From Myxococcota bacterium (GTDB lineage Bacteria; Myxococcota; JAJVIH01), in NCBI GenBank assembly GCA_022072125.1, contig JAJVIH010000059.1, positions 1 to 32,927 of the forward strand: a DNA stretch of 32,927 bases, read 5' to 3'. The translations under genes and the position numbers were made by a program. Shown piece after piece: positions 11,762 through 28,425 of the stretch. Under the pieces are notes generated by a model that searched no databases, was not told the origin of the DNA, and saw only the letters and a program-made list of their open reading frames with translations. Each line of letters starts with the position of its first letter. Position 1 is the stretch's first letter.

Positions 11762-11820
11762 GGGCTTCGACATTCCTTTTTTTCTGAACACGGATGTTTT
11801 CCATGAGAGGGTGCAACAAA

Positions 11821-14800
11821 ATGGAACAGCGAATGCTTCATGGACTGAGCCTGATTGCGGCTGTTGGGCTGGCTTTCCTGCCGTCCCTCCATGCGCATGC
11901 GCAGGGGACCAACAACCCGGTTCCGAAGATTATATCGGTCAAGCCCAACCAGTTGATCGCGGGTTCCGGGGACGCCGATCTGGAAATCACCGGCGCCAAT
12001 TTTGTCCCGGACAGCATGGCTGCGGCGGGTCCGCGGATGCCGTTGAAGACCGAATTCGTGGATTCCAAAACCATCCGGGTGAAGGCGCCGGCCAAGTACA
12101 TCGGCGGCACGGGCAAACTCAATATCACCGTCATGAACCCGGCCCCCGGCGGCGGCGACTCCAACGTGGTTCCGGTCAGCATTGTTTATCCAAAGCCGGT
12201 GGTGACAGGTTGCGATCCCGCGGAAATCGAACGGCTGAGCACACAGGCGAAGGTGACCGTCAGCGGCGAGGCGTTGCTGCCCTCCACCCAGTATTTTTTG
12301 AATGGGACCCCCGCGAAACTCAACAGCCTTGATTCCGGAAAGGCGGTATTGCTGGTTCCCGCCGCGGTGACCGCGCTGCCAAAATCCATCAGCGTGGAGG
12401 TGCGCAATCCCGCGCCGGGCGGAGGAAGCGCCAAAGCCGCGTGCGTGGTTGTCCGCAACCCGCCGCTGCAAGTGGTGTCGGGAACGCCCAACGAACTGGT
12501 GCTGAATACCCCGCGCCCCATCATTACCCTGGAGTTGAAAGGGGTGGTTCCAGAGACCATCGCCTTGGTGGGGACCCAGAAAGCCACCCTGCAGCGATCC
12601 GGATCAAAAACCGTGGCGACCCTGCCGGCCGCCGCAATAGCGAAAGCGGGACCATCCACCCTGATCATCAAAAACTCGCCAGGCGGTGAAAGCACGGAAT
12701 TTGCTTTCACGGTGATCAACCCGGCGCCGGTGGTGACCTCCGTATTTCCCAACCGGGTGGAGCGGGGCGCCAGGAACACCCTGATCGAGGTGAACGGTTC
12801 CGGTTTCGTCAATGGTTCGCGTATCTACGCCGCCGCCACGGAATTGGCGGCCAAATACGCCGGCCCCAACAAACTCACGGCGGTGCTGCCGCCGGATTTG
12901 ACCGCCAGCGCGGGCGATCTGGAACTGAAAGTGGTGACAGATTCCCCCGGCGGCGGGTCTAGCGGCGGAAAACCCATCACGGTGTTCAACCCCAGGCCGG
13001 AATTATCAGCCATCAACCCGTCTTCCGTGCAACCGGAGAGCCCCTCCGCCCAAATCAAATTGTCCGGATCGGGTTTTGTGTCAGAGTCCCAGGCCGCCGT
13101 GGATGGCAAGAATTTTCCACTGACCGTACTGTCCTCCACCTCGGCCCAGTTCGATCTGGGCGCCGATGATCTGCTGCAGGGCCGCATCGCCAAAATCTCC
13201 GTGACCTCTCCGGCCCCCGGCGGCGGTTCTTCCCGTACGGTTGAACTGGCGATCCGCCATCCCATTCCAACGCTGACAGCGATTGAACCTTCCACCGTCT
13301 CCATGGGCAAGCAGGATATTCAACTCCCGGTGACGGGAAAGGGTTTCGCCGAAGCCATCAAGGCGTTCATCAATACGACCGAACTCAAGGTCAAACGGGA
13401 TTCCAGGGAAAACCTGACCGTCACCATCCCCGCTGCCCTGTTGCGCGCGGCGGGCGCGTTGCCCATCCGGCTGCGCAATCCCGAACCGGGTGGAGGGGAG
13501 GGCGCGCCGAAGAACCTGCAGGTGGTTCATCCGGTTCCGGTTGTTTCTTCCGTGACGCCTGATTCCGGCAAGTTGCGCGCGGCCGCCGAAACCATCACGA
13601 TCACCGGCGATGGTTTTGTCAACGGCGCCTCCATTCTGGTGGAAGGAAAACCCGCCGTGACGGTCTGGCTTGCGGAAAACAAGGTCAAAGCCACCCTGGG
13701 TCCGGAATGGACGAGGACGGCTGGCGCGCTGGAATTGAAAGTCAAAAACCCCGGCCCCGGCGGAGGGGTAAGCGAGGGCGGGGTCCGGTTCGAGGTCCGC
13801 AATCCGCCGGCGCAACTGACCGGTCTCAATCCCGCCCAGGCGATCATGGAGACCACGCCTTTCAAACTCATTCTTGAAGGCAAGGATTTTGTCCCCGGTG
13901 CTGTGATCAAGGTGGATGGACAGGAGTACAAACCTTCCTCGATGACCGATACCCGCGCCGAAATCTCCCTGCCCGTGGAGGTGCTGCGGACGGCTGGAGC
14001 GCGCAAGGTGGAAATCGCCAATCCCGGACCGGGCGGAGGCGGCTCCGGCGCACGTGATCTGACGCTGGTTCCGGCGAAACCGGTGCTGCTGTCAATCAAG
14101 CCGGAACAGGCGGAACGCGGGTCGTCTTCGATGGATATCACCTTGTCCGCTTCCGGCATGAACTCCGGCACGGAGATCCTGGCGGGCAATGACGTGGTGG
14201 CGGCCATCCGCCGCCATGCTGCCGGCAAATCCATCAATCCCTCCAGCGGGGAGATCGCCCTGGCCGATAACGCCGGTCAGGTGGTGGTGCGTATCCCTGG
14301 CAGGCTGTTGGCCAATGCGGGCCCGGTGGAAATCCGCCTGCGCAACCCCGCGCCGGGCGGATCCTCCGAGCCGCGCAAGTTAATGGTTGGCAATCCCAAA
14401 CCCGAATTGAAATCCGTTCAACCCCAGAATGTCGTGGCGGAGGAGCCGGTGACCCTGAGGCTCACCGGCGCGGGCTTTGTCTCCGAAACCCAGGTGCTGG
14501 TGGCGGACAAGGAAGTGACCCCGCAGGTGCTGAATCGCAACGAAATGATCGTCAATATCCCCCGGAATTTCATTTCCGCCGCGGGCAAATTGCCGGTGCA
14601 GGTTCGCAACCCCGCCCCCAACGGCGGCGAATCTGACAAGATTGATATTCAGAGCGCCTTCCGCATCCGCACCATCGCCGGACAGGATGGCGGGGGCGGC
14701 ACGGCTGACCGCGTGGACGCCCAGATGGCCGCCATCCGGTATCCGACGGATGTGGCCCTGGACGCCAACGGCGCCATCTATTTCACCGACACCACCGGTA

Positions 14801-15693
14801 ATCTGGTTCGCCGCATTGACGCGGGCAGCAACAAAGTGATGACCATCGCCGGCAACGGCAAGCCCGGGTTCATGGGCGATGGTTCCCCGGCGCGGGAATC
14901 GGCGGTGAAATACCCCAATGCCGTGACGGTGGATTATATCGGCAACGTTTATATCGCCGATACGGAAAACCATGTGGTCCGGAAGATAGACGCCGCCACG
15001 GGGTTTATTGAAACCATCGCGGGCAATGGCACCCAGGGATATGGCGGCGACGGCGGCCGGGCGCGGGAGGCCATGCTTTCCAGCCCGGTGGGGGTGCGCG
15101 CCGATTCGATGGGGAACCTGTATATCGCGGATTTTGGCAATCACCGGGTGCGCCTGGTGGAAGCAAACAGCGGGAAAATCCGGACCATCGCCGGAACCGG
15201 GGAAGAGGGATACAACAAGGATGGCGTTCCAGCAGTGGAAGCCCAGTTGCATTCACCGAAGGACATTGTTCTGAGCGCCGATGGAACTGTGCTGTTCATC
15301 GCCGACCGGGGCAATCACCGGGTGCGCAAGGTCAATCTGAGGACGGGGATCATTGAAACCTTCGCGGGGGATGGAACCCAGGGGTTTTCGGGCGATGGCG
15401 GCCCCGCCACCAAGGCCCGGTTGAATTACCCATCCCGGTTGGCGCTGGATGAAGGGGGAAATCTGTTTGTTTCCGACGTCCGCAACCACCGCATCCGCAA
15501 GGTGGACGCCCAGCGGGGAATCATCTCCACCGTGGCGGGAACTGGTAAACCCGGCTACAGCGGGGATGGCAATCTGGCCACCAACGCTGACCTGAAAGAG
15601 CCGGGAGGCATTACATCCGGACCCGGGGGAACCCTGATCTTCACCGACTCGGGCAATAATGTCATCCGCATGGTGGGACCGGAGAAACGTTGA
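11821..15693 (+). CDS. Exported TIG/IPT-repeat protein with C-terminal NHL beta-propeller
   Basis: The predicted product is a very large exported protein of about 1,290 residues. A Sec signal peptide covers roughly residues 1-28, with a hydrophobic core followed by HAHAQ. About ten Ig-like TIG/IPT repeats of 85-95 residues follow to near residue 945. Each ends in a variant of NPAPGGG, such as NPEPGGG, NPGPGGG, NSPGGE and NPAPNGG. The last 340 residues are six NHL repeats. Each opens with a TIAGNG-like motif followed by GDG and contains a D-NHRVRKVD-type strand, giving a six-bladed propeller. ATGs at 11794 and 11803 are in frame, but only 11821 has a good ribosome-binding site (AGAGGG, 9-nt gap). 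The architecture suggests a surface or periplasmic adhesion or binding protein. No enzymatic motif is visible. Confidence 0.88.
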   Translation: MEQRMLHGLSLIAAVGLAFLPSLHAHAQGTNNPVPKIISVKPNQLIAGSGDADLEITGANFVPDSMAAAGPRMPLKTEFVDSKTIRVKAPAKYIGGTGKLNITVMNPAPGGGDSNVVPVSIVYPKPVVTGCDPAEIERLSTQAKVTVSGEALLPSTQYFLNGTPAKLNSLDSGKAVLLVPAAVTALPKSISVEVRNPAPGGGSAKAACVVVRNPPLQVVSGTPNELVLNTPRPIITLELKGVVPETIALVGTQKATLQRSGSKTVATLPAAAIAKAGPSTLIIKNSPGGESTEFAFTVINPAPVVTSVFPNRVERGARNTLIEVNGSGFVNGSRIYAAATELAAKYAGPNKLTAVLPPDLTASAGDLELKVVTDSPGGGSSGGKPITVFNPRPELSAINPSSVQPESPSAQIKLSGSGFVSESQAAVDGKNFPLTVLSSTSAQFDLGADDLLQGRIAKISVTSPAPGGGSSRTVELAIRHPIPTLTAIEPSTVSMGKQDIQLPVTGKGFAEAIKAFINTTELKVKRDSRENLTVTIPAALLRAAGALPIRLRNPEPGGGEGAPKNLQVVHPVPVVSSVTPDSGKLRAAAETITITGDGFVNGASILVEGKPAVTVWLAENKVKATLGPEWTRTAGALELKVKNPGPGGGVSEGGVRFEVRNPPAQLTGLNPAQAIMETTPFKLILEGKDFVPGAVIKVDGQEYKPSSMTDTRAEISLPVEVLRTAGARKVEIANPGPGGGGSGARDLTLVPAKPVLLSIKPEQAERGSSSMDITLSASGMNSGTEILAGNDVVAAIRRHAAGKSINPSSGEIALADNAGQVVVRIPGRLLANAGPVEIRLRNPAPGGSSEPRKLMVGNPKPELKSVQPQNVVAEEPVTLRLTGAGFVSETQVLVADKEVTPQVLNRNEMIVNIPRNFISAAGKLPVQVRNPAPNGGESDKIDIQSAFRIRTIAGQDGGGGTADRVDAQMAAIRYPTDVALDANGAIYFTDTTGNLVRRIDAGSNKVMTIAGNGKPGFMGDGSPARESAVKYPNAVTVDYIGNVYIADTENHVVRKIDAATGFIETIAGNGTQGYGGDGGRAREAMLSSPVGVRADSMGNLYIADFGNHRVRLVEANSGKIRTIAGTGEEGYNKDGVPAVEAQLHSPKDIVLSADGTVLFIADRGNHRVRKVNLRTGIIETFAGDGTQGFSGDGGPATKARLNYPSRLALDEGGNLFVSDVRNHRIRKVDAQRGIISTVAGTGKPGYSGDGNLATNADLKEPGGITSGPGGTLIFTDSGNNVIRMVGPEKR

Positions 15694-16420: not shown

Positions 16421-17203
16421 ATGAACCGTAGCATTCTTGCAGTGATTCTGGTTGTCTTCTTCGGTGGTCTGGCGTTTGTAACCTGGGAGTTTCTGGTTCC
16501 CAAACCGGACGATCAGCCTATCGTTTTCACCCCTCCGCCCACCCCTCCAGGGTATAATGAGCGGATAGGCAAGGAAGACCCGGACGCGGGTCTGCCCAAA
16601 TTCTTCCCCGCGGAGCCCGCGGTCACCGCCCTCGATAAGCCGGCAGGCGGTGAAGTTGGCCTGGTGGATGCCGTCAAGGGCCAGCATGTGCGTTTGGTCC
16701 GCGGCGGAAAAAACATGACGCCCGCCAAGGGAGAAACCATTTATGCTCAGGATTTGATCGTTACCGGACCCCAAAGCCGTATCCGCGTGAAGCTGGGCGA
16801 TGGGTCTGTCCTGAATCAGGGATCCAACAGCCAGTCCGTGGTCAACCAGTTCTCCTACAAGGATGGCGAGAGCCGGGAGGTCAAATTCGAGTTGTCGTTC
16901 GGCAAAATCCTGCTTGATATCAGGAAGTGGGCCCACGGCGGCCGCAACGAGTTTGAAGTGAAATCCCCCTCTGTTGTCGCTGGCATCCGCGGCACCACCA
17001 TCTGGGCTGATGTGGAGCAGGACGCCATGTGCGTGCTGGAGGGCAAGATCGCGGCCAAAAGCCGGCAGGATGAAACCAAACCGGAGATTGAAGTTCCGGC
17101 AGGTAAGGGGTTGAAAGACCTGTCTTCCGGCAAGATGACCGTATTCGATGTCACCCCGGACGATGAAAAGGCGTACAAGGACAGCATCCTGATCACGGAC
17201 TGA
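16421..17203 (+). CDS. Membrane-anchored FecR-domain protein
   Basis: The 260-residue protein has an N-terminal hydrophobic segment at about residues 4-24, which could be an uncleaved anchor or a signal peptide. A Pro-rich stretch (FTPPPTPPGY) comes next, and then a FecR-like domain at roughly residues 80-215. The diagnostic part is FEVKSPSVVAGIRGTTIWADV, close to the FecR consensus in which a phosphorylated-looking VRTP/AVAGVRGT loop precedes a beta-solenoid. FecR proteins usually carry iron or envelope signals to an ECF sigma factor. No sigma factor, TonB receptor or other partner is nearby, so it may be a stand-alone envelope FecR-domain protein. A hairpin terminator follows it. Confidence 0.8.
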   Translation: MNRSILAVILVVFFGGLAFVTWEFLVPKPDDQPIVFTPPPTPPGYNERIGKEDPDAGLPKFFPAEPAVTALDKPAGGEVGLVDAVKGQHVRLVRGGKNMTPAKGETIYAQDLIVTGPQSRIRVKLGDGSVLNQGSNSQSVVNQFSYKDGESREVKFELSFGKILLDIRKWAHGGRNEFEVKSPSVVAGIRGTTIWADVEQDAMCVLEGKIAAKSRQDETKPEIEVPAGKGLKDLSSGKMTVFDVTPDDEKAYKDSILITD

Positions 17204-17227
17204 AATCCTGCTTTCCGTTCCTCGCCG

Positions 17228-17253
17228 CAGGCCGCCAGAAGGCGGCCTGTTTG
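17228..17253 (+). terminator. Hairpin resembling a rho-independent terminator
   Basis: A perfect 9-bp stem, CAGGCCGCC paired with GGCGGCCTG, closes a 4-nt AGAA loop at 17228-17249. It is followed by a short T-containing tail (TTTGCTTG). It begins 24 nt after the FecR-gene stop. The T tract is short, so termination efficiency is uncertain. Confidence 0.55.
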
Positions 17254-17288
17254 CTTGATGGAAAGCCGCGGCCTCACGAAAGTCCATC

Positions 17289-17317
17289 TGGACAGATCGC
17301 GGCGGGGAACCCATAAT
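17289..17317 (+). promoter_or_regulatory. Putative sigma70-type promoter giving a nearly leaderless transcript
   Basis: TGGACA at 17289-17294 and CATAAT at 17312-17317 each match consensus at 5 of 6 positions and are 17 nt apart. The -10 box ends only 7 nt before the ATG at 17325, so transcription would begin at or next to the start codon. No Shine-Dalgarno sequence is present at the correct distance, in keeping with leaderless initiation. Confidence 0.5.
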
Positions 17318-17324
17318 CCGCGCG

Positions 17325-18329
17325 ATGATGAAGAAGTTCACCTGGGGATATCTCTGGACTGCATATGGGCGCTGGCTGTTGCTGGCGCTGGGCGTGGGCG
17401 CGCTCTGGGTGCTGGTTCAACGCTCCGGCCCTGAGCAGGTGTTTTCCGCCGTGGCGGCGGCGTCACCCTGGATTCCAGTCATTCTGGCGCTGGAAATTCT
17501 GTGGATATCCATGGATGTTGTCGCGGTCTGGCGTCTGGCGGGTCCCCGCCGCAAACAGGTTTCCCTGGGCGAATGGGTGCGCACGGGCATGATGGCCTAT
17601 TCCATCATGACCTTCCTGCCCGCTGGCAGGGCGGGCGGGGAAATCGCCCGCGCCGCCGGGTTGGCCCCCCACGTCGGCGGCCCCAGGGCGAGCGCCGCCG
17701 CGGCGCAACTGCAAAGCCTGGTGCTGATCGCCAATTTTTTGGTGTGCATGATGTGCGCCCTAGCCGTGACCGGAATCGCCGGCGCGGATCAACTCCTGTT
17801 TCCCGCGCTTCTGGTCAATGGGACAATCACCCTGTCCCTTGGGTCATTCATGCAACTGGGGATGCGACGCATCCAGTTGGGCGGCTGGCTAGGGCGGAAA
17901 ATCGAAAAGCTGCGGCATCATGGCCCTGAATTTGACCGGGCCATCCAGGAAAGCGGCGGATTCCCTTTTCAACCATTGATGATTGTCACCCTGGGCAGGC
18001 TGTTTCAGGTGGCGCAATACGGGGTTCTGGTGATGGCGGTCGGCGGGTCCCTGGGCGTCCAGGTTGCGTTTGTCGCCGAGGGGATCCACCTCATCGGCGC
18101 CGGACTGGGTGATATGGTTCCAAACCAGGTGGGAATCACGGAAGGCGCCTTCAGTCTTTTCCGCGCCGCTCTGGGGTTTCAGGATCAGGAAGCACGGGCC
18201 ATCAGCATCGCCATACTGGCCCGGTTGGTGCAGTTCGCCTTTGGCGGGGTGTGCATTGTATTCAGCGGCACGCCCAAGGCGCCCAATCCCCAGCCGGAAA
18301 CCGGGGTGGAACCTGGCGCCGCTGGATAA
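17325..18329 (+). CDS. Lysylphosphatidylglycerol synthase TM-region (UPF0104-like) membrane protein
   Basis: This 334-residue polytopic inner-membrane protein resembles the flippase-like transmembrane region of MprF/lysylphosphatidylglycerol synthases (UPF0104, LPG_synthase_TM). About seven hydrophobic segments are visible, including LLLALGVGALWVLV, WIPVILALEILWISMDVV and LVLIANFLVCMMCALAV. The conserved loop around MTFLPAGRAGGEIARA and the late motif GDMVPNQVGITEGAFSLF are characteristic. The soluble aminoacyl-transferase domain of MprF is absent. Family members have been linked to lipid or hopanoid translocation, but the substrate here cannot be told. Two ATGs (17325, 17328) are adjacent. 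The gene is convergent with the SNase gene at 18397. Confidence 0.82.
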   Translation: MMKKFTWGYLWTAYGRWLLLALGVGALWVLVQRSGPEQVFSAVAAASPWIPVILALEILWISMDVVAVWRLAGPRRKQVSLGEWVRTGMMAYSIMTFLPAGRAGGEIARAAGLAPHVGGPRASAAAAQLQSLVLIANFLVCMMCALAVTGIAGADQLLFPALLVNGTITLSLGSFMQLGMRRIQLGGWLGRKIEKLRHHGPEFDRAIQESGGFPFQPLMIVTLGRLFQVAQYGVLVMAVGGSLGVQVAFVAEGIHLIGAGLGDMVPNQVGITEGAFSLFRAALGFQDQEARAISIAILARLVQFAFGGVCIVFSGTPKAPNPQPETGVEPGAAG

Positions 18330-18396: not shown

Positions 18397-18999
18397 CTAT
18401 TTCAGGCAGGCGATTTCGGAGCAACTTCCCCACATGCCCATTTTGGCGTTCCGGGCGGAATCCTGGATTTTCTTGAACTCGCCCGCCCGATCATCTCCAT
18501 TGGGGGGGATATGCAGTACGCAGGCGTATCCGCGCTCCACCAGCAGGGTGTTGAGTTCCCGGTTGTTGAGATAAACATACGCCAGCAGACGATTGTACCG
18601 GTCCCGGCAAACCTTGTCGTAGACCAGCGAAATTTCCTGGTTCAGCACCAGGCTTTTGTTGAACTCCTTGGCTTCCAGGCCATAGCAGTCCGCGGCGCCC
18701 TTGGTGGTTTCGGGGGTGTCCACCATCAGGTAGCGGATTTTCTCGCCCCCCTCGATGGTGATGGTGTCCCCATCGGTGACGGCCACGACTTTCGCCCGGG
18801 CGGGACCGCATGAAACATTCCCGGCTGGAAGAGAAGCGTCGCCGCCCGCGCTTGAAGCGCCGCTATCGGCCGCGCCATCAACCGAGGTTTCCCCGCATCC
18901 CGCCGCCAACAAGCCTATCAGGAACAAGATCGGCGGCAGACAGGGCTTTTCCTGCCTTCGCCTGGCTGCGGCAAGGTTGTTGATGAGAACCGGGATCAT
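18397..18999 (-). CDS. Exported thermonuclease (SNase-like) lipoprotein
   Basis: The predicted lipoprotein has 200 residues. A positively charged N-terminus and hydrophobic stretch lead to the lipobox LAAGC, with the lipidated cysteine near residue 35. An acidic/serine linker follows, and then a staphylococcal-nuclease domain (residues 68-190) that hydrolyses DNA and RNA with Ca2+. The catalytic set is complete: Asp78 in DGDT, Arg89, Asp94 and Glu97 in IRYLMVDTPE, and Arg137 in DRYNRLLAYVY. Three or more cysteines in the mature part could form disulfides. ATG at 18999 overlaps the stop of the triple-LTD gene as ATGA, which supports this start over one further upstream. It is the last gene of a five-gene coupled operon. 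Confidence 0.9.
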   Translation of the reverse strand: MIPVLINNLAAARRRQEKPCLPPILFLIGLLAAGCGETSVDGAADSGASSAGGDASLPAGNVSCGPARAKVVAVTDGDTITIEGGEKIRYLMVDTPETTKGAADCYGLEAKEFNKSLVLNQEISLVYDKVCRDRYNRLLAYVYLNNRELNTLLVERGYACVLHIPPNGDDRAGEFKKIQDSARNAKMGMWGSCSEIACLK

Positions 19000-20810
19000 G
19001 GACAATTGGCGTTGGCCGCGCCCGGAGTGCCCAGATCTCCCTTGCCGAAGGGCGCGGCGGCCTTGCACCAGTTGGCCGGATCATCGTTCGCGGCCGGGTC
19101 TGTCTTCCGGGCGTCCAATTGAGACGACGCGCCATCGCTGGTGGTGGAATATTTGGTCCCATCAATGAGTTGGCCGTCAATCCCCAGGAAAATCCCCTTG
19201 TTGGAATTGGACAATGTGAAAGAAGCCTTGACGTTCACCTTGGGAATACCGCCGTTCTCGTCCGGGTTGTCTTCGCGGGCGAAGACCAGATAACTGCCGG
19301 TTTTCACCGGGATGCAATCCATCGGGTTCAGGCCGCCAGTGAAGCTGCCTTCCGTGGTGGATATCTGCAGCCCGTTCAGATCGGCGTCGCGGGTGACATA
19401 GGCTTCAAACCATTCGCCTTTGGTGTCATCCACGGCCTTGGGATTGGCCAGATATTCGGTGATGACCAGATCGCCGGCGTTCAGCCGGTTGATAGGGCGT
19501 TCCCTGCCGCCTTCCAGACAAGCGCCTTTCATGGGGCCGCCGCCATCAGAGGGACCGGAATCCGATGGGCCGCCATCGGTGGTTCCGCCGTCCGCGTCTC
19601 CGCCTCCCGCGCAGGGAGTATTGGCGGCGCGCGGCGTGCCTTTGTCTCCCGCTCCATAGGTGGAAGTGGAACGGCACCAGTTGGCGGGGTCGTCGTTTGC
19701 GGCGGCGTCCAACTTCGCCGGATCAAGCTGGGTGGAAACCCCATCTCCCGTGGTGGCGTAGGTGATTCCATCAATCAGATCCTCTTCATAACTCAGATAA
19801 ATTCCTTTGTTGGAGTTGGTCAGGGACAGGTCCACTTCGCTGTCCACTTCAGGCAAGCCGCCATTGGCCGCCGTGTCGGCCACCCGTGCGAACAGCAGGT
19901 AAGAGCCCGCCTTGACGGAGATACATTCATCCGCCTCAACCACCAGTTTGGGAGCGCCTTCCTCGGTTCCAATTTCAAGCCCGTTCAGGTCCATATCCTT
20001 CCTGACCAGCACTTCAAACCATTCGCCCTTCGTGTCATCTACCGCTTTGGGGTTGGCGTGGAACTCCGTAATCACCAGGTCTCCGGCCGAAGGGGGGATG
20101 GTCTCGCGTTCGGCTCCGGATTCATCCAGACAGGTCCCGGGAGCGGCGGGGCCGCCATCCTCTCCGGGATCAACCCCGCCGTCTGGCGGTCCGCGGCTCC
20201 CGCACGATGGATTGGCCTTGCCGGGCGAGCCGAAATTTCCTCCGCCCAAATCATCGGACCCGGGGCACCAGTTGGCGGCATTGTCATTGGCGGCGGAATC
20301 GGGCGTTTTGGATCCATCCAGGCTGTAGGACTGGCCTTCCTTGCTCCCCGCGTAAATCACTTCGTCAATTTTGCTGTCGCCGCAGCCGATTCCAAGCAGG
20401 CCGGCCTCGTTGCGCAGGTCTCCCAGGTCCGCTCCATAGCCATAGTCCGCGAACGACGGCTTGGCTTCGTTCAGGGCGTTGGAGAAGGTGAAATACTGGC
20501 CGGCTCCGATTTGTCCGCTTTTGATGGTGTGGGACTTTTTGCCGGAAAGGTCCGCCTTGGCCGAATAGATGGACAGACCCGTCAAATCCACGGCCTTGCC
20601 GCTGGCGTTGAAGATTTCAAACCACTCGTTGCCGGTGTCCGCCCCCTTGGGGTTGAACATGATCTCCGTGATGATCAAATCCCCCGCGACGAATTTCCCG
20701 CCGCAGGCGCCCGGACCAGAACCGCCATCCACGCCGCCCTTGTCAGTCGAACATCCAACCGCCGTGGCCGCCAGGGATAACGCCGTCAGAACCTTCATAC
20801 GCAGTTTCAT
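18996..20810 (-). CDS. Lipoprotein with three lamin-tail (LTD) domains
   Basis: This 604-residue lipoprotein has signal residues 1-19 and lipobox AVGC with Cys20. It carries three repeats of about 160 residues at 41-203, 241-400 and 443-603. Each starts GDL(V/I)ITE and continues through NPK...EWFE, then (D)LNGL or DLTGL. Each ends ANWC...G(T/S)P(G/R)(A/K)AN..C. This is the Ig-like bacterial lamin-tail fold. Two cysteines in each repeat could pair. Repeats 2 and 3 share longer identical stretches (NPKAVDDTKGEWFE), so they duplicated more recently than repeat 1. Linkers are rich in DGG and Pro. Bacterial LTDs often accompany secreted nucleases, and both flanking genes are SNases. Starts and stops overlap by ATGA at both ends. 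Confidence 0.88.
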   Translation of the reverse strand: MKLRMKVLTALSLAATAVGCSTDKGGVDGGSGPGACGGKFVAGDLIITEIMFNPKGADTGNEWFEIFNASGKAVDLTGLSIYSAKADLSGKKSHTIKSGQIGAGQYFTFSNALNEAKPSFADYGYGADLGDLRNEAGLLGIGCGDSKIDEVIYAGSKEGQSYSLDGSKTPDSAANDNAANWCPGSDDLGGGNFGSPGKANPSCGSRGPPDGGVDPGEDGGPAAPGTCLDESGAERETIPPSAGDLVITEFHANPKAVDDTKGEWFEVLVRKDMDLNGLEIGTEEGAPKLVVEADECISVKAGSYLLFARVADTAANGGLPEVDSEVDLSLTNSNKGIYLSYEEDLIDGITYATTGDGVSTQLDPAKLDAAANDDPANWCRSTSTYGAGDKGTPRAANTPCAGGGDADGGTTDGGPSDSGPSDGGGPMKGACLEGGRERPINRLNAGDLVITEYLANPKAVDDTKGEWFEAYVTRDADLNGLQISTTEGSFTGGLNPMDCIPVKTGSYLVFAREDNPDENGGIPKVNVKASFTLSNSNKGIFLGIDGQLIDGTKYSTTSDGASSQLDARKTDPAANDDPANWCKAAAPFGKGDLGTPGAANANCP

Positions 20811-21931
20811 GGGGTTTGCTCGCTTGGTGAAGGCGCCGCGCCTGTGACCGGATTGGCGGTCGAAGGCTCCAGCACCTGGCCGGGCAGGGTGACAACGATC
20901 TGCAGTTGCTCGGTGTTCCGGTATTTGTCCTGATATTTGTTGACCAGTCCGCGCACCCGCACATATTCGCCGGAGTATTTGGCGATTTGGGAACTGGTCA
21001 GCACGTCATTGTCAAAAAAGACGAGGGGAAAATCCGCCTTGGCCCGCTTGCTCAACATCACCATGGAGGGGCCGCGCTCCCGTACGATGATCCTGCCCAC
21101 CACGCCAAAAACCACGACTTCCTTGCCGATGTATTGCTCCAACTGGCGCAGCGCGTCCCACCGGGTTAGGGAGACATAATTAGGATGGGACTCCATCTCT
21201 TCCTCGAATTTTTTCACTTCTTCCGCCCGGCGGTTCCACCAGGACAGGCGCTCCGGATAGTCCGGATAATGTTTGATGGATGGATCCCAGATGCCGGCGC
21301 GTTTCGCCTGAGCCTCCGCCTGGGCCGCTACGAACTCCCTGTGAAACCGGCGGGAATAACCGTATTTGGTGAAGTATGGACTCCAACCCGCCCGCACCAC
21401 CTCGATATTGTAATTGATCCAGCGGCCGTCTTTCTTCGCGTAGATATAGGAGAGGTACCGGTTGTAATAGTCGCGGATTTCCCTGGGGTGATCCCGTTCC
21501 AGCTTGACCTCGGGATGGCCGGAAAAAAATTCATCGGCGAATTTTTTCGCGGCTTCGCCCGCCGGGGTCGCCATCTTCACCGGTTTGCTGGAGCCGCCCC
21601 GGTTCTTCCTGAGGTATTCATCCCAGGTCAGGGTTTCAAAATCCCGGCGTTCATGCTCCTTCTTGAAGGTCTCTTCCGTATCCACGCCCAGCAGGCGCAG
21701 GGTGGAGGGCAGTTCCTTCACCCGGATGGTGTCGCCATCGAGGATGGCTTTTTCATCCGCCAGCGTGAACAGCCCAATATCCAGGCCGGGAACTTCCGCC
21801 TTGAGTACGGCTTTGGAAATGTCCTTCTTGTTGTAACGCTGCGGGGCCGAGGAGCAATTGGCCGCTCCCATGGCGGCGATGGCGATCGCCAGCAGGGAAG
21901 GGAGCCAGATTTTTTTCAGCCGTCGAGCCAT
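20807..21931 (-). CDS. Exported SNase-like nuclease with C-terminal OB-fold
   Basis: The predicted exported protein has 374 residues. Its signal segment covers residues 7-25 before Cys26 (GAANC, an imperfect lipobox, so lipidation is likely but unsure). The SNase domain has Asp67 in DGDT, Arg79, Asp84 and Glu87 in LRLLGVDTEE, and Arg158 in DYYNRYLSYIY. An insertion of about 45 residues (about 90-135) separates the two halves of the active site, longer than in typical SNases. Residues 266-352 look like a nucleic-acid-binding OB-fold (IGKEVVVFGVVGRI, YVRVRGLVNKYQDKY). ATG at 21931 is preferred because the basic, hydrophobic signal starts there. Its stop overlaps the triple-LTD start as ATGA. 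Confidence 0.86.
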   Translation of the reverse strand: MARRLKKIWLPSLLAIAIAAMGAANCSSAPQRYNKKDISKAVLKAEVPGLDIGLFTLADEKAILDGDTIRVKELPSTLRLLGVDTEETFKKEHERRDFETLTWDEYLRKNRGGSSKPVKMATPAGEAAKKFADEFFSGHPEVKLERDHPREIRDYYNRYLSYIYAKKDGRWINYNIEVVRAGWSPYFTKYGYSRRFHREFVAAQAEAQAKRAGIWDPSIKHYPDYPERLSWWNRRAEEVKKFEEEMESHPNYVSLTRWDALRQLEQYIGKEVVVFGVVGRIIVRERGPSMVMLSKRAKADFPLVFFDNDVLTSSQIAKYSGEYVRVRGLVNKYQDKYRNTEQLQIVVTLPGQVLEPSTANPVTGAAPSPSEQTP

Positions 21932-21938
21932 GGATATG

Positions 21939-22565
21939 TCAGGACCCCGGTTTCTGGCACGGGGGATTTTTTCGTCTTGGACTGCCTGGGATTCCCAATC
22001 CCGCCCCATCCCCCGTGGATGGAGTGTCGTTCACGCACCATGACTGGGCATTATCGTTGTTCTGGGCGTTGGGTTCCAGCGCGCCGTCCAGGGACCAGGT
22101 TCCAGCCGTTGGGAGACCACGGAAAACCACCTTGTCGAGGGATTTTCCGCAGGCCTGCACTTCCAGGATCCCATCGCCGGGCAGGTCCTTGGAAAAACTG
22201 TCCGCGTAACCGTAATCCACATGGGAGGGAATATCCTTTTCCGGAAAACGTCCCATCACGAAATACGATTTGGCGCCGATGGACGCCTGCGGATCGCGCA
22301 CGAGGATATCGGCGATGACAGAGCCATCCAGCCGCAGTATCCGGATTTTCGCCCCGGATAGACTGATCTCCGCCGTGGTGGGGTTGTACAGCTCAATCCA
22401 TTGTCCCTGGGAATCGGCGCCGGACTGCTTGCCGCGAATCTCCGCCGCCACGATGGCGCCATCGGGAATATTCGCCTGCGCGCAGCCAGAGGTTTGCAAC
22501 GGCTCGCGCCCGCATCCCCAGAACACCCAAACCATGGCGGAAAACGCCAGCAACCGGGACCACAT
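21939..22565 (-). CDS. Small exported lamin-tail (LTD) domain protein
   Basis: The 208-residue exported protein has an N-terminal hydrophobic segment ending FWGC. This may be a lipobox with Cys18, although Trp and Phe before it are unusual. One LTD-type domain covers about residues 33-205, with IVAAEIRGKQ, GQWIELYNPT and LSGAKIRILR. It ends with the same NAQSWC...IPGSP...PPC pattern seen in the triple-LTD lipoprotein. Its ATG shares one base with the stop codon of the outer-membrane barrel gene (TGATG), so the two are translationally coupled. It ends 7 nt before the SNase-OB start. It is probably a binding partner in the same surface complex; no catalytic motif is visible. Confidence 0.82.
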   Translation of the reverse strand: MWSRLLAFSAMVWVFWGCGREPLQTSGCAQANIPDGAIVAAEIRGKQSGADSQGQWIELYNPTTAEISLSGAKIRILRLDGSVIADILVRDPQASIGAKSYFVMGRFPEKDIPSHVDYGYADSFSKDLPGDGILEVQACGKSLDKVVFRGLPTAGTWSLDGALEPNAQNNDNAQSWCVNDTPSTGDGAGLGIPGSPRRKNPPCQKPGS

Positions 22566-24721
22566 CAGAATCGCGCCTCCACATCAAAACGGAAGCGGTG
22601 TTCCGGCGAGGGATTGCGTTTGGCGGTGGAATCGCGTTCGTCGAGATAAACCAGAAAATCGTAGCGCAGACGGCCCGAGACCATGCCCGCGAAGTTATAA
22701 AAGGCGTCCAGGTAACTCCAGATGAACTGGCGCAGGTAGGTGTTATCGGAAATATCCTCGTTCCGGTAATTGCCGCGCAGGCGGATGCCCAGGCGATCCA
22801 CGGGCCGCACCACGATGGTGAGCCATGCGACCGCGTCCTGGCGCATGTCTTCCTTGTAGCGCGGGTCGGAGAGCCATTCGTGCTGGTACTGCACGGAGAC
22901 ATCGAAGACCCTGGCGGGGGAATAACGCAGCCTGGCCACTCCCACATAACGCTCGCCGCCGCAGCGCAGGGGTTCGCCCTCCGGAATGGTGTCCGCGTTG
23001 AAGAAATCAAAACATTCGCCCGGGCCGTTGCGCCCCAGGTTTTTGTTGAAATAACGGACCCACAGGCTGGGAATAAACTTCTTGACGCCCAGGTAATCCG
23101 CCCGCAGGAACAAATTGGTATTCAACACGCCATCGGAAGGATAGGTCCAGAAATCGGCGGAGGAACGCAGTTCGATGACTTCCGGCCAGCGGCCATTGTG
23201 GCGGAAGCGGGCGCCCGCTTCATCGCGGGAGCGCACGCCGTCCACTTCATCCGGCGCGGCGATGGCGCGGGAGTATGGATTGTCGAAATTTTTTCCATAG
23301 TAGCGCAGGGCCAGTTCCAGTTCGTGTTTGTCCAGGCTGGCGACCGACCGCTGGAGCACGCCGAAATCGCCGCCCTGATTGGGAATGGAATCCAGGCTGC
23401 GCGTTCCTTCAATGAACATATCCAGCCAGGAAACTCCGTACGATCCGGACAAACCCACCGCGCCGAAAGGACCGCCGTAGGGAAAACGGGACCATTCCTG
23501 AAAATCCAGTTCCGCGCCTTCGGATAGCCATTGCGTCGTGGCGTAATAGCCCGTCACTCCAATGCCGCTGCGCCGGTTAAAGAAGAAGGAGGCGTGTCCG
23601 CCGCCCATGATCTCGTTGAACATGTCAGGCAGGGTGCTGTAGCTGAACCGGGAAGTGGGTTCGAGCAGGTTCTCGCGGCGCACGAACACGCTGGGCGCAC
23701 CGCAGTTGGGATCGTCATCGTTCTGCGGGTCGTCGCAGCGCAGGCGGCTGTACAATTCATATTGGTAAATGGATCGGGTCTGGTGCGATCCAAAGGCGAA
23801 GGCCTGCAGGAAGGACTCGTCGCCGAGTTTGAGCTTCTTTACACCCAGCGCGACTCCGCGGAAGCTCTGGTACCAGTCGTAATCCGGAGTGATGTATTCA
23901 TAGCGCTTGTCTCCCGCGCAGGGGGAGACGTCCAGTTCTCCCGTGGATTGGCGGCAACGCACGGACAAGTCCGCTATGCTGAAGACGACGGTGTCATCCA
24001 GGTAAAAGCCGTTGGGGGTGTAGCGGTTGGTGTTGTCCAGGGTCAGCCGTTGAGCGAAACCAATGCGATAGCTGCCGCCAATGACGCCCCATTCCGGTGT
24101 TTCCCACTTCAGGAAGAGTTTCGGCATGACCACGGTGGGAGCGGGCTCCAGGGCGGAAAGCGCGAGGCGGGAGGGATCAAATCGCACGTCGCCCGCCTGC
24201 TGGCGGTTGAGCAACAGCGCGCCGCCGGCGGAGAGATGACGCAATCCCGAAAGCCGGAACTGCGTGAACATGGGCGGAACCTCGTCATCGCTTGGCGCCC
24301 ACGCGAGGCCGTAGCGGAAGCGCCCGGAAAACAGGCTGTATTTGCGGTCCGCGTCGCTCACCACCAGGAACGGGGCGATCGCCGTCAACTCCGCCGCGTC
24401 GAGCACTCCCGCCCCAATCAGTTCCGATGGGTCCTTGATGCCGCCGGTTTGCATCCGGAATTCGATGATGGCGTCCGCCTGAGCATAGGTGATGTTCGGC
24501 AGCACATAGATTTCGTCCCGGCTGGCGGTGTTCAGGTCCACGCCGGTGCGCAGGGTGTCCAGCAGCAGGTCAAAGGTGGTTTCGGAGATATCCTGAGAGA
24601 GCAGCAGTTCGTAGAGGTCCTGTTCGTCTTCAATCTCAATAAAAACTTCGTATTGGGCCGCGCGGGCCGGCGCCGCCAGCAACCCGGCCGCAAGCGCCAG
24701 GCCGCACGCAACCTGGCGCAT
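22565..24721 (-). CDS. Outer-membrane beta-barrel protein with N-terminal helix-hairpin-helix domain
   Basis: The 718-residue exported protein has a signal peptide at 1-21 (LALAAGLLAAPARA). Residues about 58-118 form a ComEA-like helix-hairpin-helix: VDLNTASRDEIYVLPNITYAQ then AIIEFR. This is the canonical DNA-backbone-binding VNxNTAxxxEL arrangement. The rest is an alternating hydrophobic/polar beta pattern with many aromatic residues, and the protein ends RFRFDVEARF, the C-terminal Phe signature recognised by the BAM complex. It therefore looks like a barrel with a periplasmic DNA-binding domain. ATG at 24721 starts the signal peptide; a longer TTG frame from 24781 is less likely. It heads the coupled LTD/SNase operon. 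Confidence 0.85.
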   Translation of the reverse strand: MRQVACGLALAAGLLAAPARAAQYEVFIEIEDEQDLYELLLSQDISETTFDLLLDTLRTGVDLNTASRDEIYVLPNITYAQADAIIEFRMQTGGIKDPSELIGAGVLDAAELTAIAPFLVVSDADRKYSLFSGRFRYGLAWAPSDDEVPPMFTQFRLSGLRHLSAGGALLLNRQQAGDVRFDPSRLALSALEPAPTVVMPKLFLKWETPEWGVIGGSYRIGFAQRLTLDNTNRYTPNGFYLDDTVVFSIADLSVRCRQSTGELDVSPCAGDKRYEYITPDYDWYQSFRGVALGVKKLKLGDESFLQAFAFGSHQTRSIYQYELYSRLRCDDPQNDDDPNCGAPSVFVRRENLLEPTSRFSYSTLPDMFNEIMGGGHASFFFNRRSGIGVTGYYATTQWLSEGAELDFQEWSRFPYGGPFGAVGLSGSYGVSWLDMFIEGTRSLDSIPNQGGDFGVLQRSVASLDKHELELALRYYGKNFDNPYSRAIAAPDEVDGVRSRDEAGARFRHNGRWPEVIELRSSADFWTYPSDGVLNTNLFLRADYLGVKKFIPSLWVRYFNKNLGRNGPGECFDFFNADTIPEGEPLRCGGERYVGVARLRYSPARVFDVSVQYQHEWLSDPRYKEDMRQDAVAWLTIVVRPVDRLGIRLRGNYRNEDISDNTYLRQFIWSYLDAFYNFAGMVSGRLRYDFLVYLDERDSTAKRNPSPEHRFRFDVEARF

Positions 24722-24811: not shown

Positions 24812-26191
24812 TCATCCGTCCAGCGCGTCACGATAAAGTTTCCCGATTGTACGGGCGTGTTCCTCGATCGGTTGAACGGCCGGGGCGTTGCCCGCCAGTT
24901 CCCGGAGCAGCGCCGGATTTTCCGTCAGGCGCCGCATGCAGGCCGCCAGTAAACCGGCGTCTCCGGGGTTGAACAGCAGTCCATCCACGCCATCGCGGAC
25001 CGCTTCTGGCAAGGCCCCCAGCCGTGACGCGATAACCGGCATGCGCGCCATCCGCGCCTCGGCGATGGTCAAGGGGGCGTTCTCATACCAGCGGCTGGGA
25101 ATCACCAGCGCGTCAAACTCGCGGTAGACAGCGCCCGCATTCATGGGATCAAAGGGGCCGCGCCATTGGATACGGTCTCCCGTCCGTTCCATCAGCGGGC
25201 GGGTGAAGGCGGGAAATACACCCGTGTCGCCGAAGACCAGAAATTCCGCGCCGGTCACCTGCGAAGCGGCGGCGCAAAAAACATCCAGCCCCTTGCTGAA
25301 GGATGGAGTACCTACAAAACCGAAGCGCACGGGGCCAGGTCCGCGCGGTGCGGGCGAAAAACCGGATGCATCATGACCATGCGGCAAAATGATCAGCCGT
25401 CCGTTGTCAAAACCGTGGTCTTTCATGCGTTCGTAAAGAAACCGCGAGGGAGCAATCACCCTGCGCATGCGCCCATATACCTCGCGGAACGCCCGCAACC
25501 GGGTTTCGATGGCGGACGCCGGCAATGGCGGAATGGGCGCGGCCCGGGATTTTCCGCCGGCGCTTTTCATGAAAAGGCGATCAACAAGCGGCGCCAGATC
25601 AGTCCGGTGAGCGCGCACCCATTGCGACGCGGATGGAGGTGCGATCGCCGCCAGCCTGGGAGTCCAGCGCAGGGCCTGGCGCTCGACCCAGGCGGACGCC
25701 GCCGCCTGATCCGGAACGCAATCAGCGCATATTATGGAAATGGCCTTCTGGCACAGTTCGCCGCCGGCCCGCATCATCTGTCCGCCGCGGGGACACAGCG
25801 GAAAATAATCATGAAGCGTGGCGATCATCGGCGTTTCTTCGCTCTGGAGCGCGCGCAGGCCCGAGAGACCAATATCGAGGGTATGGTGGACATGGAGAAT
25901 ATCCGGGCGAAAATCCGCGGCCGTCTGGCGCAGGGCTTTTCCCGCCGCCGGGTTCTCCCAGCAGGAAACGAATCCATCGCGCCGCCGGTGATGCACATGG
26001 CGGAAGACCGGCACGCCGCCGAAAGAGTCGAGGATGGCCTTGCCTTCGGGCTGGAAGACGTCATACTCCCCGCAAAACACCGCCACGGCATGGCCAAGGC
26101 TCATCAGTTGACGCGCCAGCCGCCAGGCGTAAATCTCCGTGCCCGCCATGATGCGGGGCGGGAAATCGTGGATCACCATCAAGACCCTCAT
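24812..26191 (-). CDS. GT4-family glycosyltransferase
   Basis: This 459-residue GT-B glycosyltransferase transfers a sugar from an activated donor, probably during envelope polysaccharide or lipopolysaccharide synthesis. The N-terminal donor-free domain opens MRVLMVIHDFPPRIMAGTE, the classic start of the family. LHVHHTLDIGL and TLHDYFPLCPRGG follow. The C-terminal donor-binding domain has FVGTPSFSKGLD and the E-x7-E motif in ENAPLTIAEA. A run of cysteines (residues 150-165, CQKAISIICADCV) is common to GT4 members with this middle segment. Its start is only 11 nt from the divergent mutM start. It may share a transcript with the barrel operon downstream. Confidence 0.9.
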   Translation of the reverse strand: MRVLMVIHDFPPRIMAGTEIYAWRLARQLMSLGHAVAVFCGEYDVFQPEGKAILDSFGGVPVFRHVHHRRRDGFVSCWENPAAGKALRQTAADFRPDILHVHHTLDIGLSGLRALQSEETPMIATLHDYFPLCPRGGQMMRAGGELCQKAISIICADCVPDQAAASAWVERQALRWTPRLAAIAPPSASQWVRAHRTDLAPLVDRLFMKSAGGKSRAAPIPPLPASAIETRLRAFREVYGRMRRVIAPSRFLYERMKDHGFDNGRLIILPHGHDASGFSPAPRGPGPVRFGFVGTPSFSKGLDVFCAAASQVTGAEFLVFGDTGVFPAFTRPLMERTGDRIQWRGPFDPMNAGAVYREFDALVIPSRWYENAPLTIAEARMARMPVIASRLGALPEAVRDGVDGLLFNPGDAGLLAACMRRLTENPALLRELAGNAPAVQPIEEHARTIGKLYRDALDG

Positions 26192-26202
26192 GGCGATACT
26201 CT

Positions 26203-28425
26203 ATGCCTGAATTGCCAGAAGTGGAAAACCTGCGGCGCGACCTGGAAGACCATGTCGCCGGCAGCCGGATCGTGGGCTTTGAATATTCGGGAAGCGCCCT
26301 GCGCCGCTCCAACGCCGCCATTCATCTGGCCGGACAGGTGGAAGGGCGGCGCTTCCGGCGTTTTCACCGCCGCGGCAAATACATCCTGGCGGAACTGGAT
26401 GGACCCACCGCGATGCTGATTCACCTGGGCATGAGCGGGCGGATGCGCCTGTGCGGCGGGAGCGAGCCGCGGCAGCCGCATACCCACGCTGTCTGGCGCC
26501 TGGAAGGCGGCAGGGAACTGCGGTTTGTGGACCCGCGCCGCTTTGGCGTTCTCAGGCCGTTTTCGTGGGAACAGCGCGATCAACTGCCCGAACTGAAGAA
26601 AATGGGCCCAGAGCCTTTGTCGAAGGAGTTCTCCCCGCAAGTATTGAAAGAGGCGCTCGCGGGCCGGAATTGCGATATCAAGGCCGCTCTGCTGGATCAG
26701 ACCACCGTGGCGGGAATCGGCAATATCTACGCCAGCGAAGCCCTGTGGGAGGCCCGCATCCACCCCGCCGCCAGCGCGTCGTCGCTCAGGTCCGCGCAAG
26801 TGGAGCAACTGCACGCCGCCATCTCCGCCGTGCTGCACCGGGCCGTTCCCGCGCGCGGAACCACGTTCTCGGATTTCGAGGACCTCTTCGGAAAAACCGG
26901 CGGCCATCAAAACGATCTGAAGGTTTTCCAGCGCGAGGGAGAGCCCTGTCCCCGCTGCGGAACCCGGATCATCCGCATGGTGCAATCCGGCCGCTCGACC
27001 TTTCTCTGCCCGGCCTGCCAGCCTGCGCCGCACGGTGCGAAGGCGCGCATCCGGAAATACCTCCTCGCCACGGGCGTGCTCATGGCGCTGGCGGCGTTTG
27101 CTGGTTGCTCCAGCCGCCCAGGCGCCGCGGCCGGTCCACCGGCGGAAACCCGGCCGCCCCAATACTGGAGCGATCTTTCCGCTCGCGAACAAAGCTGGAT
27201 CAGCGAGGTGTTTGAACGCGCGCGCGTGATGGCTTCCGGAGCCAAGACCACGAGGGAGCGCGTCGCCTGGGCTCGCGATGAAATCAGCCGCAAGTTGTTC
27301 GATGGCTCCGGGCAGGGCGGAACATCTGGCGATTTGGAGAAAGACCGCGTCAGGGTGATGGTCCGCCGCGGCAAGGCGATGCTGATTCTGCGGCAGGGCG
27401 AGCGTCTTCCTCATGAAGGAATGGTGATTGTTCTGATTCCCGTGGATTCGCCCCGCCTGGAGATGAAACAGAATCCGGAAGCCGCGGAGGGGGGATTCAT
27501 CCGCTACCAGGCCGCCATGGCGGGCCGTTTCGACATGAAAAGCTGGCTGTCGTTCCCGCTTTCCCTGCATGGCGACTGGGTGGATGACAACGGAGAATTG
27601 CGTCACGCCATCATCGGCGAGGCGGAGGGCGAGCCGCGTTTTGTGATTCCCGATCTTCTTCCGCATCTGTCGTACAAAGCCCAGTCGCAGCGCGTGGTTC
27701 ATGGCGAACAGATGGACCCGCTGGCGGCGGTTCACGAAGACGGCGTTCCAGTCACCGCCACGGTCTGGTCATTGCCGGGCGGAAAGAGCGCGCCTCTTCA
27801 TGCGGCCGCGGACGGCGAATGGACATTCACGCCATCCGGACCCGCCTGGTATGCGGGCATGGGAAGGGGCGCGCTGGCCGGATACGGCGCCGGACCCTGC
27901 GCGCTGGCGGCGGGGGCGATCCACGCCCTTGCGGACGCCAACATAGGAACCGGCAGCGCGGCCGTGCTGCTGGCGGATCGCTCCACCATGCAGCAATCGG
28001 GGAATACCGGCCGCGCCATGGTGGAACAACTGTTGTTTGAAATGATGTCCTCCTCATCCCGTGATGACAGCGCCCTGGGTTTCCTCCGGGCGATGTCCCG
28101 TTCCGCCATCTTCGTGGCGGATGATTTTTCCGGCGAACCAGGCCGGGGCGTGACCATCAACCCGCGCCAATCCGCGGCTTTGCGCCAGCAATTCCGTCCG
28201 CTGGCCAGCCTGCTGGAGCGCGAACGCATACCGTTTGTGGTGCAAAACCGCATGACCTGGTGGTCGTGGACGCGCTGGGTGCAGACCCTGGATGTCAACG
28301 CCATCAGCCTGTCCATTCCAGTGGCGGGTCACGAACGCGCGCAATCCGTCGTGAACCGCAACGATTTCGCGGCGTGGGTGCGCGCGCTCAAGGCCATTAT
28401 TGAATCGGAGTGGAGCGATGAATAG
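26203..28425 (+). CDS. mutM: Formamidopyrimidine-DNA glycosylase reading through into a lipoprotein-like M18 homologue
   Basis: Residues 1 to about 275 are MutM/Fpg, which excises oxidised purines and nicks the abasic site. Pro2 and Glu3 of MPELPEVE are the catalytic N-terminus, which fixes the start. Lys59 matches Lys57 of E. coli. The QTTVAGIGNIYASE helix-two-turn-helix is present, and the zinc finger is Cys249, Cys252, Cys269 and Cys272. A normal Fpg would stop here. Instead the frame continues 465 codons, beginning with a perfect lipoprotein signal (RKYLLATG to AFAGC, Cys302). A cytoplasmic glycosylase joined to an export signal makes little sense. Either a separate lipoprotein starts internally or a stop has been lost. 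Only 11 nt separate it from the divergent glycosyltransferase. Confidence 0.85.
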   Translation: MPELPEVENLRRDLEDHVAGSRIVGFEYSGSALRRSNAAIHLAGQVEGRRFRRFHRRGKYILAELDGPTAMLIHLGMSGRMRLCGGSEPRQPHTHAVWRLEGGRELRFVDPRRFGVLRPFSWEQRDQLPELKKMGPEPLSKEFSPQVLKEALAGRNCDIKAALLDQTTVAGIGNIYASEALWEARIHPAASASSLRSAQVEQLHAAISAVLHRAVPARGTTFSDFEDLFGKTGGHQNDLKVFQREGEPCPRCGTRIIRMVQSGRSTFLCPACQPAPHGAKARIRKYLLATGVLMALAAFAGCSSRPGAAAGPPAETRPPQYWSDLSAREQSWISEVFERARVMASGAKTTRERVAWARDEISRKLFDGSGQGGTSGDLEKDRVRVMVRRGKAMLILRQGERLPHEGMVIVLIPVDSPRLEMKQNPEAAEGGFIRYQAAMAGRFDMKSWLSFPLSLHGDWVDDNGELRHAIIGEAEGEPRFVIPDLLPHLSYKAQSQRVVHGEQMDPLAAVHEDGVPVTATVWSLPGGKSAPLHAAADGEWTFTPSGPAWYAGMGRGALAGYGAGPCALAAGAIHALADANIGTGSAAVLLADRSTMQQSGNTGRAMVEQLLFEMMSSSSRDDSALGFLRAMSRSAIFVADDFSGEPGRGVTINPRQSAALRQQFRPLASLLERERIPFVVQNRMTWWSWTRWVQTLDVNAISLSIPVAGHERAQSVVNRNDFAAWVRALKAIIESEWSDE
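27049..28425 (+). other. Second half of the fused frame: lipoprotein-like, catalytically dead M18 peptidase homologue
   Basis: From about residue 283 of the frame, 458 residues match the length and pattern of the two M18 peptidases that follow. Shared anchors include the N-terminal helix, the VDSPRLEMKQNP segment, FPLSLHG, VIPDLLPHLS and GYG. The metal and catalytic residues are lost: His of HxD is Pro413, Asp-Asp-Arg becomes Gly564-Pro565-Cys566, and the Glu-Glu pair becomes Ser594-Thr595. The nearest recognisable start is missing. GAAGG at 27039-27043 lies 5 nt before ATC at 27049, which would give an ideal lipoprotein signal with lipidated Cys at 20. ATG at 27082 leaves too short a signal. 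Probably a scaffold or regulatory pseudoenzyme. Confidence 0.65.

What the first reader, a model, noticed from the sequence alone, without database searches (positions are those of the whole stretch)
18397..24721. Coupled operon of HHH-barrel, lamin-tail and SNase proteins: possible surface DNA capture and cutting machine
Seen: five minus-strand genes joined by 1-4 nt overlaps or a 7-nt gap. In order they encode an outer-membrane barrel with a ComEA-like HHH domain, an LTD protein, an SNase-OB nuclease, a triple-LTD lipoprotein and an SNase lipoprotein. All carry export signals and both nucleases have complete active sites. Known: ComEA HHH domains bind double-stranded DNA in uptake, LTDs often occur beside secreted nucleases, and SNases cut DNA and RNA. 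Inferred: the set binds extracellular DNA, threads or anchors it at the outer membrane, and degrades it for nutrition or uptake. It is not a textbook competence locus, since no pilus or ComEC gene is visible.
Basis: partly seen in the sequence, partly recalled or inferred. Interest (0 to 1): 0.82.

Follow-up and report, generated by a model that had tools for sequence, protein, structure and literature searches.

The report
Conserved myxobacterial surface DNA-digestion operon
A five-gene operon kept together across predatory myxobacteria probably builds a cell-surface station that cuts up DNA or RNA from outside the cell and passes the pieces through a dedicated outer-membrane pore; the part thought to grip DNA like a competence protein has lost the residues needed to do so.

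Summary
Five minus-strand genes (24721 to 18397) join by 1-4 nt overlaps or a 7-nt gap: an outer-membrane barrel with a ComEA-like HHH domain, an LTD protein, an SNase with an OB-like tail, a triple-LTD lipoprotein and an SNase lipoprotein.

The set is real biology. It recurs throughout Myxococcota. The barrel gene occurs in Myxococcus xanthus, where the contig ends before its partners could be seen; full sets occur in close Myxococcus relatives. All 198 neighbouring cluster pairs in 78 named loci are on one strand; of 38 loci with long flanks, 38 have an LTD gene and 35 an SNase. Both nuclease active sites are nearly invariant.

The barrel models confidently (pLDDT 90) as 24-stranded, with a net-positive lumen and six conserved cysteines in outer loops.

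The 'HHH captures DNA' step fails its own test. In all 74 aligned HHH domains the second hairpin glycine is gone, and the lysine essential in Vibrio ComEA is basic in only 3.

Best reading: a surface nucleic-acid scavenging locus, comparable in logic to SNase-LTD lipoproteins such as Hvo_1477 plus a dedicated channel. The channel's role is inferred. Rivals: surface display of the lipoproteins by the barrel, eDNA remodelling, pilus-less DNA uptake.

The parts
22565..24721 (-). Outer-membrane beta-barrel with N-terminal HHH_3 (ComEA-like) domain, 718 aa, Sec signal
   Evidence: relatives
24365..24547 (-). HHH_3 domain of the barrel protein, degenerate hairpins (LPNIT, AGVLD)
22568..24328 (-). 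Predicted 24-stranded beta-barrel; six conserved cysteines (C256/C268, C329/C340, C570/C587) in outer loops
21939..22565 (-). LTD lipoprotein-like protein, 208 aa (LTD1)
   Evidence: partner gene in relatives
20807..21931 (-). SNase with C-terminal OB-like domain, 374 aa, lipoprotein-like
20894..21121 (-). OB-like domain of the SNase-OB protein
   Evidence: sub-threshold Pfam tRNA_anti-like; AF2 topology
18996..20810 (-). Triple-LTD lipoprotein, 604 aa (LTD modules about 20196-20708, 19605-20135, 18999-19526)
18397..18999 (-). SNase lipoprotein, 200 aa, complete active site

Best explanation
A surface nucleic-acid scavenging locus of Myxococcota. Two SNase lipoproteins on or just under the outer membrane cut extracellular DNA or RNA. 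LTD lipoproteins (1-5 tandem modules in relatives) hold the substrate or the nucleases at the surface, as LTDs may do in single-chain SNase-LTD and ExeM-type nucleases. The 24-stranded barrel, with its net-positive lumen and probably disulfide-stapled outer loops, lets the polyanionic products into the periplasm. The HHH-derived domain is a periplasmic structural or docking piece, not a DNA clamp. Shown here: gene set, conservation, active sites, export-type signals, predicted barrel topology, loss of HHH DNA-contact residues. Inferred: surface exposure, binding by LTDs, transport by the barrel, nutritional purpose.
For: Operon conserved over deep divergence (barrels about 33-48% identical to the window's) with permuted gene order but constant membership. 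Catalytic residues nearly invariant in both SNases (the only site with repeated real exceptions is D40 of SNase2, N in 2 of 53). Four partners carry lipobox-like signals. AF2 barrel pLDDT 90.4, pTM 0.88; 24 strands with periplasmic turns of 2-5 residues and outer loops up to 65 residues, all six conserved Cys in the outer loops, lumen net charge mean +11, range +3 to +18 (strand-parity estimate). SNase and LTD occur fused in one lipoprotein in Haloferax Hvo_1477, whose deletion diminishes growth on DNA as phosphorus source (PMC3929857); B. subtilis YhcR with NucA and NucB reclaims eDNA phosphate (PMC11458576); LTD plus a YhcR-like OB region sit in the secreted nuclease ExeM (PMC6085458).
Against: No nucleotidase, phosphatase, nucleoside or phosphate transporter was seen as a shared neighbour (one search found no sixth family in more than 20 of 78 loci, though shadow reading frames blurred that screen). 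Outer loops are net negative, odd for a surface meeting DNA. No energy coupling (TonB box, plug) is evident. Substrate, localisation and regulation are untested. Many Myxococcota lack the barrel.
Confidence: 0.5

Rival explanations
1. The barrel is a dedicated secretion or display channel that puts its partner LTD and SNase lipoproteins on the cell surface, in the way Slam barrels or ushers serve their neighbours; the HHH-derived domain docks substrates in the periplasm. The nucleases then act outside for any purpose.
For: Best structural neighbours of the 24-stranded barrel are usher translocation pores FimD/PapC. The barrel is nearly always with LTD-type lipoproteins and gene order is tight. 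The HHH domain has lost DNA contacts, fitting a protein-protein role.
Against: Foldseek TM-scores are only 0.35-0.38 with about 8% identity, a general large-barrel match that also covers TonB receptors and the Mtr complex. No usher plug, usher periplasmic domains or TPR-type Slam domain is seen.
Confidence: 0.22
2. Extracellular DNA remodelling: the set trims eDNA in the biofilm matrix or slime or clears prey DNA, and import is incidental.
For: Active-looking exported SNases and LTDs; matrix DNA is bound to exopolysaccharide in M. xanthus biofilms (PMC9073016, abstract); predatory Bdellovibrio nucleases affect biofilms (PMC3593177, title and abstract).
Against: Does not explain why a 24-stranded barrel is a constant partner of the set.
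Confidence: 0.15
3. Pilus-independent DNA uptake for transformation or nutrition, with the barrel as the dsDNA pore, in the manner proposed for Riemerella (barrel RS04915, surface protein RS04920, HHH protein RS02645 all essential).
For: Barrel with ComEA-derived domain, net-positive lumen, ComEC elsewhere in the genome, no stand-alone ComEA found there. Riemerella precedent (PMC8459023).
Against: HHH lacks ComEA DNA contacts in 71-74 of 74 sequences and is shortened in many Myxococcaceae. Two active nucleases beside the pore would destroy transforming DNA. ComEC is near-universal in the phylum with or without the barrel. Short stand-alone HHH proteins coexist with the barrel in several genomes.
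Confidence: 0.1

Closest known systems
Hvo_1477 and other SNase-LTD surface lipoproteins (YokF/Nuc-like)
   Same: Lipoprotein SNase domain plus a lamin-tail domain; implicated in use of extracellular DNA (PMC3929857)
   Different: There the domains are one chain with no barrel described; here they are separate neighbouring genes with an outer-membrane barrel
YhcR (Bacillus) and ExeM (Shewanella)
   Same: OB-type and nuclease domains in exported, surface-associated nucleases; ExeM also has an LTD (PMC6085458, PMC11458576)
   Different: Single large proteins, wall-anchored or secreted, ExeM with an EEP nuclease; no dedicated outer-membrane barrel partner in the passages read
ComEA
   Same: The N-terminal domain matches HHH_3 and aligns with solved ComEA (8dss, E 3e-5)
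   Different: Fused to a barrel; hairpin glycines and essential lysines lost
SusCD-type and other surface-lipoprotein plus barrel utilisation systems
   Same: Logic of surface hydrolase and binding lipoproteins beside an outer-membrane channel (own knowledge)
   Different: Barrel is 24-stranded with no plug domain seen; lipoproteins are LTD and SNase, not SusD or glycoside hydrolases
Chaperone-usher pores (FimD, PapC)
   Same: 24-stranded barrel, top Foldseek hits
   Different: TM about 0.36, about 8% identity; no usher plug or periplasmic chaperone-binding domains, no chaperone or pilin genes noted beside it
Riemerella barrel/HHH natural-transformation genes
   Same: Barrel plus HHH plus surface protein, proposed to work without known pilus parts (PMC8459023)
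   Different: Homology not tested (sequences not held); there HHH is a separate protein; no SNases described as partners

Membership tests
Staphylococcal nuclease (SNase) family | SNase fold above family cut-off | tested here: met
   Pfam PF00565, both above cut-off; model of the SNase-OB protein matches SNase crystal structures
Staphylococcal nuclease (SNase) family | Catalytic D21, R35, D40, E43, R87 equivalents | tested here: met
   Alignments; conserved in 43/43 SNase-OB rows with the region and 50-53 of 53 SNase2 rows
Staphylococcal nuclease (SNase) family | Nuclease activity | not testable with these tools
   Needs purified protein
ComEA DNA receptor | HHH_3 domain | tested here: met
   Pfam 39.3 bits against cut-off 27
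ComEA DNA receptor | GIG hairpin glycines and K62/K63-type contacts | tested here: not met
   Second glycine absent in 74/74; K63 position basic in 3/74; K-K pair in 0
ComEA DNA receptor | NCBI comEA model | tested here: not met
   TIGR01259 19 bits, cut-off 152
Lamin tail domain proteins | LTD above Pfam cut-off | tested here: met
   Triple-LTD protein 80 bits; single-LTD protein below cut-off but aligns with the same modules
Integral outer-membrane beta-barrel | Even number of amphipathic strands, short periplasmic turns, C-terminal strand ending in F/aromatic | tested here: met
   24 strands, alternating pattern; sequence ends ...VEARF
Chaperone-usher | Close structural match and chaperone/pilin partners | tested here: not met
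   TM 0.35-0.37; no such partner seen among the conserved neighbours
Type IV pilus competence locus | Pilus or ComEC genes in the conserved locus | tested here: not met
   No sixth conserved partner found; ComEC lies on another contig

The most novel reading that the evidence does not exclude
A new kind of pilus-free, nuclease-coupled nucleic-acid import machine: surface SNases nick or shorten DNA held by LTD lipoproteins and a 24-stranded barrel takes oligonucleotides or DNA strands across the outer membrane.
Probability: 0.2. Interest if true: 0.85.

Novelty: new variant of a known kind. Interest (0 to 1): 0.6.

Why it matters
How large DNA or its fragments cross the outer membrane without a pilus is open. 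Here an uncharacterised barrel family travels with exported nucleases across Myxococcota, including Myxococcus species with genetics, so a single deletion series can test a dedicated nucleic-acid utilisation locus, relevant to how predatory bacteria eat prey DNA and RNA. It also warns that an HHH_3 annotation alone does not mean DNA binding.

Tried and rejected
HHH as DNA clamp: rejected by residue test. HHH net charge as evidence: dropped, because the solved ComEA stretch is also slightly acidic by my hand count. The other HHH_3 hit in the genome as a ComEA: it is a Tex-type RNA-binding protein by sequence. Co-occurrence with ComEC as support: uninformative, near-universal. Search for a sixth conserved partner: none beyond clade-local synteny, with shadow frames blurring the result. 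Gene fusions between barrel, LTD and SNase: none convincing; one weak hit in L062 lies in the upstream part of a stop-to-stop frame and may be read-through before the true start. Promoter and terminator scan: barely above shuffles, no use. First genome-contig scan with the single barrel sequence found nothing; the family alignment worked. Barrel against viral structures: only generic barrels. Literature: no paper found describing this gene set. T6SS PAAR search of the genome: no match.

Full report
OBSERVATION. Domains: HHH_3 plus barrel, LTD, SNase plus OB-like, three LTDs, SNase. The single LTD and the OB are the weaker calls. Both SNases keep the catalytic set against solved staphylococcal nucleases.

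WHERE IT LIES. The window is a whole contig (C43) of a 4-Mb Myxococcota assembly; the phylum is inferred from its held relatives and from the named loci. Named relatives come from Myxococcales, Nannocystis, Enhygromyxa, Kofleriaceae, Archangium, Corallococcus and Myxococcus, including M. xanthus AM003. One record labelled Comamonas (L103) resembles the Myxococcus loci and is probably mislabelled.

CONSERVATION. Of 58 relatives, 24 have a barrel match; in the phylum 102 of 156 genomes match, about 14 of them only through weak, mostly short hits, many over the HHH alone. In 78 named loci the cluster was scored with the window's proteins. All 198 neighbouring pairs are on the same strand. The commonest order is LTD1, SNase-OB, LTDxN, SNase, barrel (24 loci); then barrel, LTDxN, SNase (14); then SNase-OB, LTDxN, barrel (11). 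With at least 7 kb on both sides, 38 of 38 loci have an LTD gene and 35 an SNase. Of the three without, L074 and L088 have N gaps beside the barrel and ordinary chromosomal genes upstream, and L112 appears to lack both SNases. For M. xanthus AM003 itself (L105) the contig ends just after the barrel, so the partners were not seen there; close relatives such as L108-L111 have them. The barrel tree places the window next to the split between barrel-first and barrel-last groups; order changed little and membership persisted.

NUCLEASES. Over 53 SNase2 and 45 SNase-OB rows, the equivalents of D19, D21, R35, D40, E43 and R87 are nearly invariant. Four partners have lipobox-like signals in about two thirds of rows by a crude pattern.

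BARREL. AlphaFold2 with 43 family sequences gives mean pLDDT 90.4 and pTM 0.88. DSSP shows helices 10-95 and 24 long strands. Strand-parity analysis on the alignment gives lipid-facing and lumen-facing sides, periplasmic turns of 2-5 residues and outer loops up to 65. All six conserved cysteines (four in 75-77 of 77 rows, the last pair in 57) lie in the outer loops; disulfides are inferred. The lumen estimate is net positive in all 43. Foldseek against the PDB finds only generic large barrels, ushers first, TM about 0.36. I had no coordinates, so pore size and the position of the HHH domain are unknown.

THE HHH TEST. In V. cholerae ComEA, K63 is essential, K63E abolishes transformation, G60V/E of the GIG hairpin destroys it, and R71 is judged structural (PMC3879209). 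The family alignment to solved ComEA (8dss) puts residues 78, 81 and 89 of the window protein at G60, K63 and R71. Across the family: 78 is T/D/S/N/A in 74 of 74; 81 is D/Q/E/H in 71 of 74; 89 is R in 70 of 71. Hairpin 2 has L/I/V in place of its second glycine, and in Corallococcus and Myxococcus much of the domain's second half is deleted. So the fold is inherited but the known DNA contacts are gone. Another mode of binding is not excluded.

MECHANISM. Most likely a surface station for nucleic-acid digestion with its own outer-membrane channel (0.5). Precedent for SNase-LTD lipoproteins in use of DNA as phosphorus source is experimental in Haloferax, and for eDNA phosphate reclamation in Bacillus. 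That the barrel imports products is inference from constant linkage and lumen charge. The main rival is that the barrel displays the lipoproteins (0.22).

NOVELTY. Each domain family is known. I found no description of the set or of this barrel family in the open-access literature searched; subscription papers were not available. I rate it a new variant of a known kind.

Noticed in passing
window 26203-31284: MutM (formamidopyrimidine-DNA glycosylase) reads in frame into a lipobox-bearing segment with an M18 aminopeptidase match; two further M18-type ORFs follow. Possible frameshift, read-through or real fusion.
   Followed up: no
window 11794-15693: 1299-aa exported-looking protein with nine choice-of-anchor Z/TIG repeats and NHL repeats.
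   Followed up: no
window 16421-18329: FecR-domain protein and an HpnL-like membrane protein run toward the operon from the other side.
   Followed up: no
window 24812-26191: Family 4 glycosyltransferase on the same strand 90 nt upstream of the barrel; could share its transcript, but did not show up as a partner in the first relatives checked.
   Followed up: partly
G000:C34:27984-30653, G000:C14:39571-39909, G000:C11:7313-7606: Other LTD proteins (one with four LTD matches) and a third SNase in the same genome, outside the operon.
   Followed up: no
L022:10628-11173: Extra SNase-like ORF on the opposite strand between SNase2 and the barrel gene.
   Followed up: no
L103: Record named Comamonas sp. 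KCTC 72670 carries a Myxococcus-type cluster; probably mislabelled or contaminated.
   Followed up: no
L074 about 9560-9675, L088 about 9640-9800: Runs of N just upstream of the barrel where the LTD gene should be, with rpoC-like or other chromosomal genes beyond; probably masked or misjoined contigs.
   Followed up: partly
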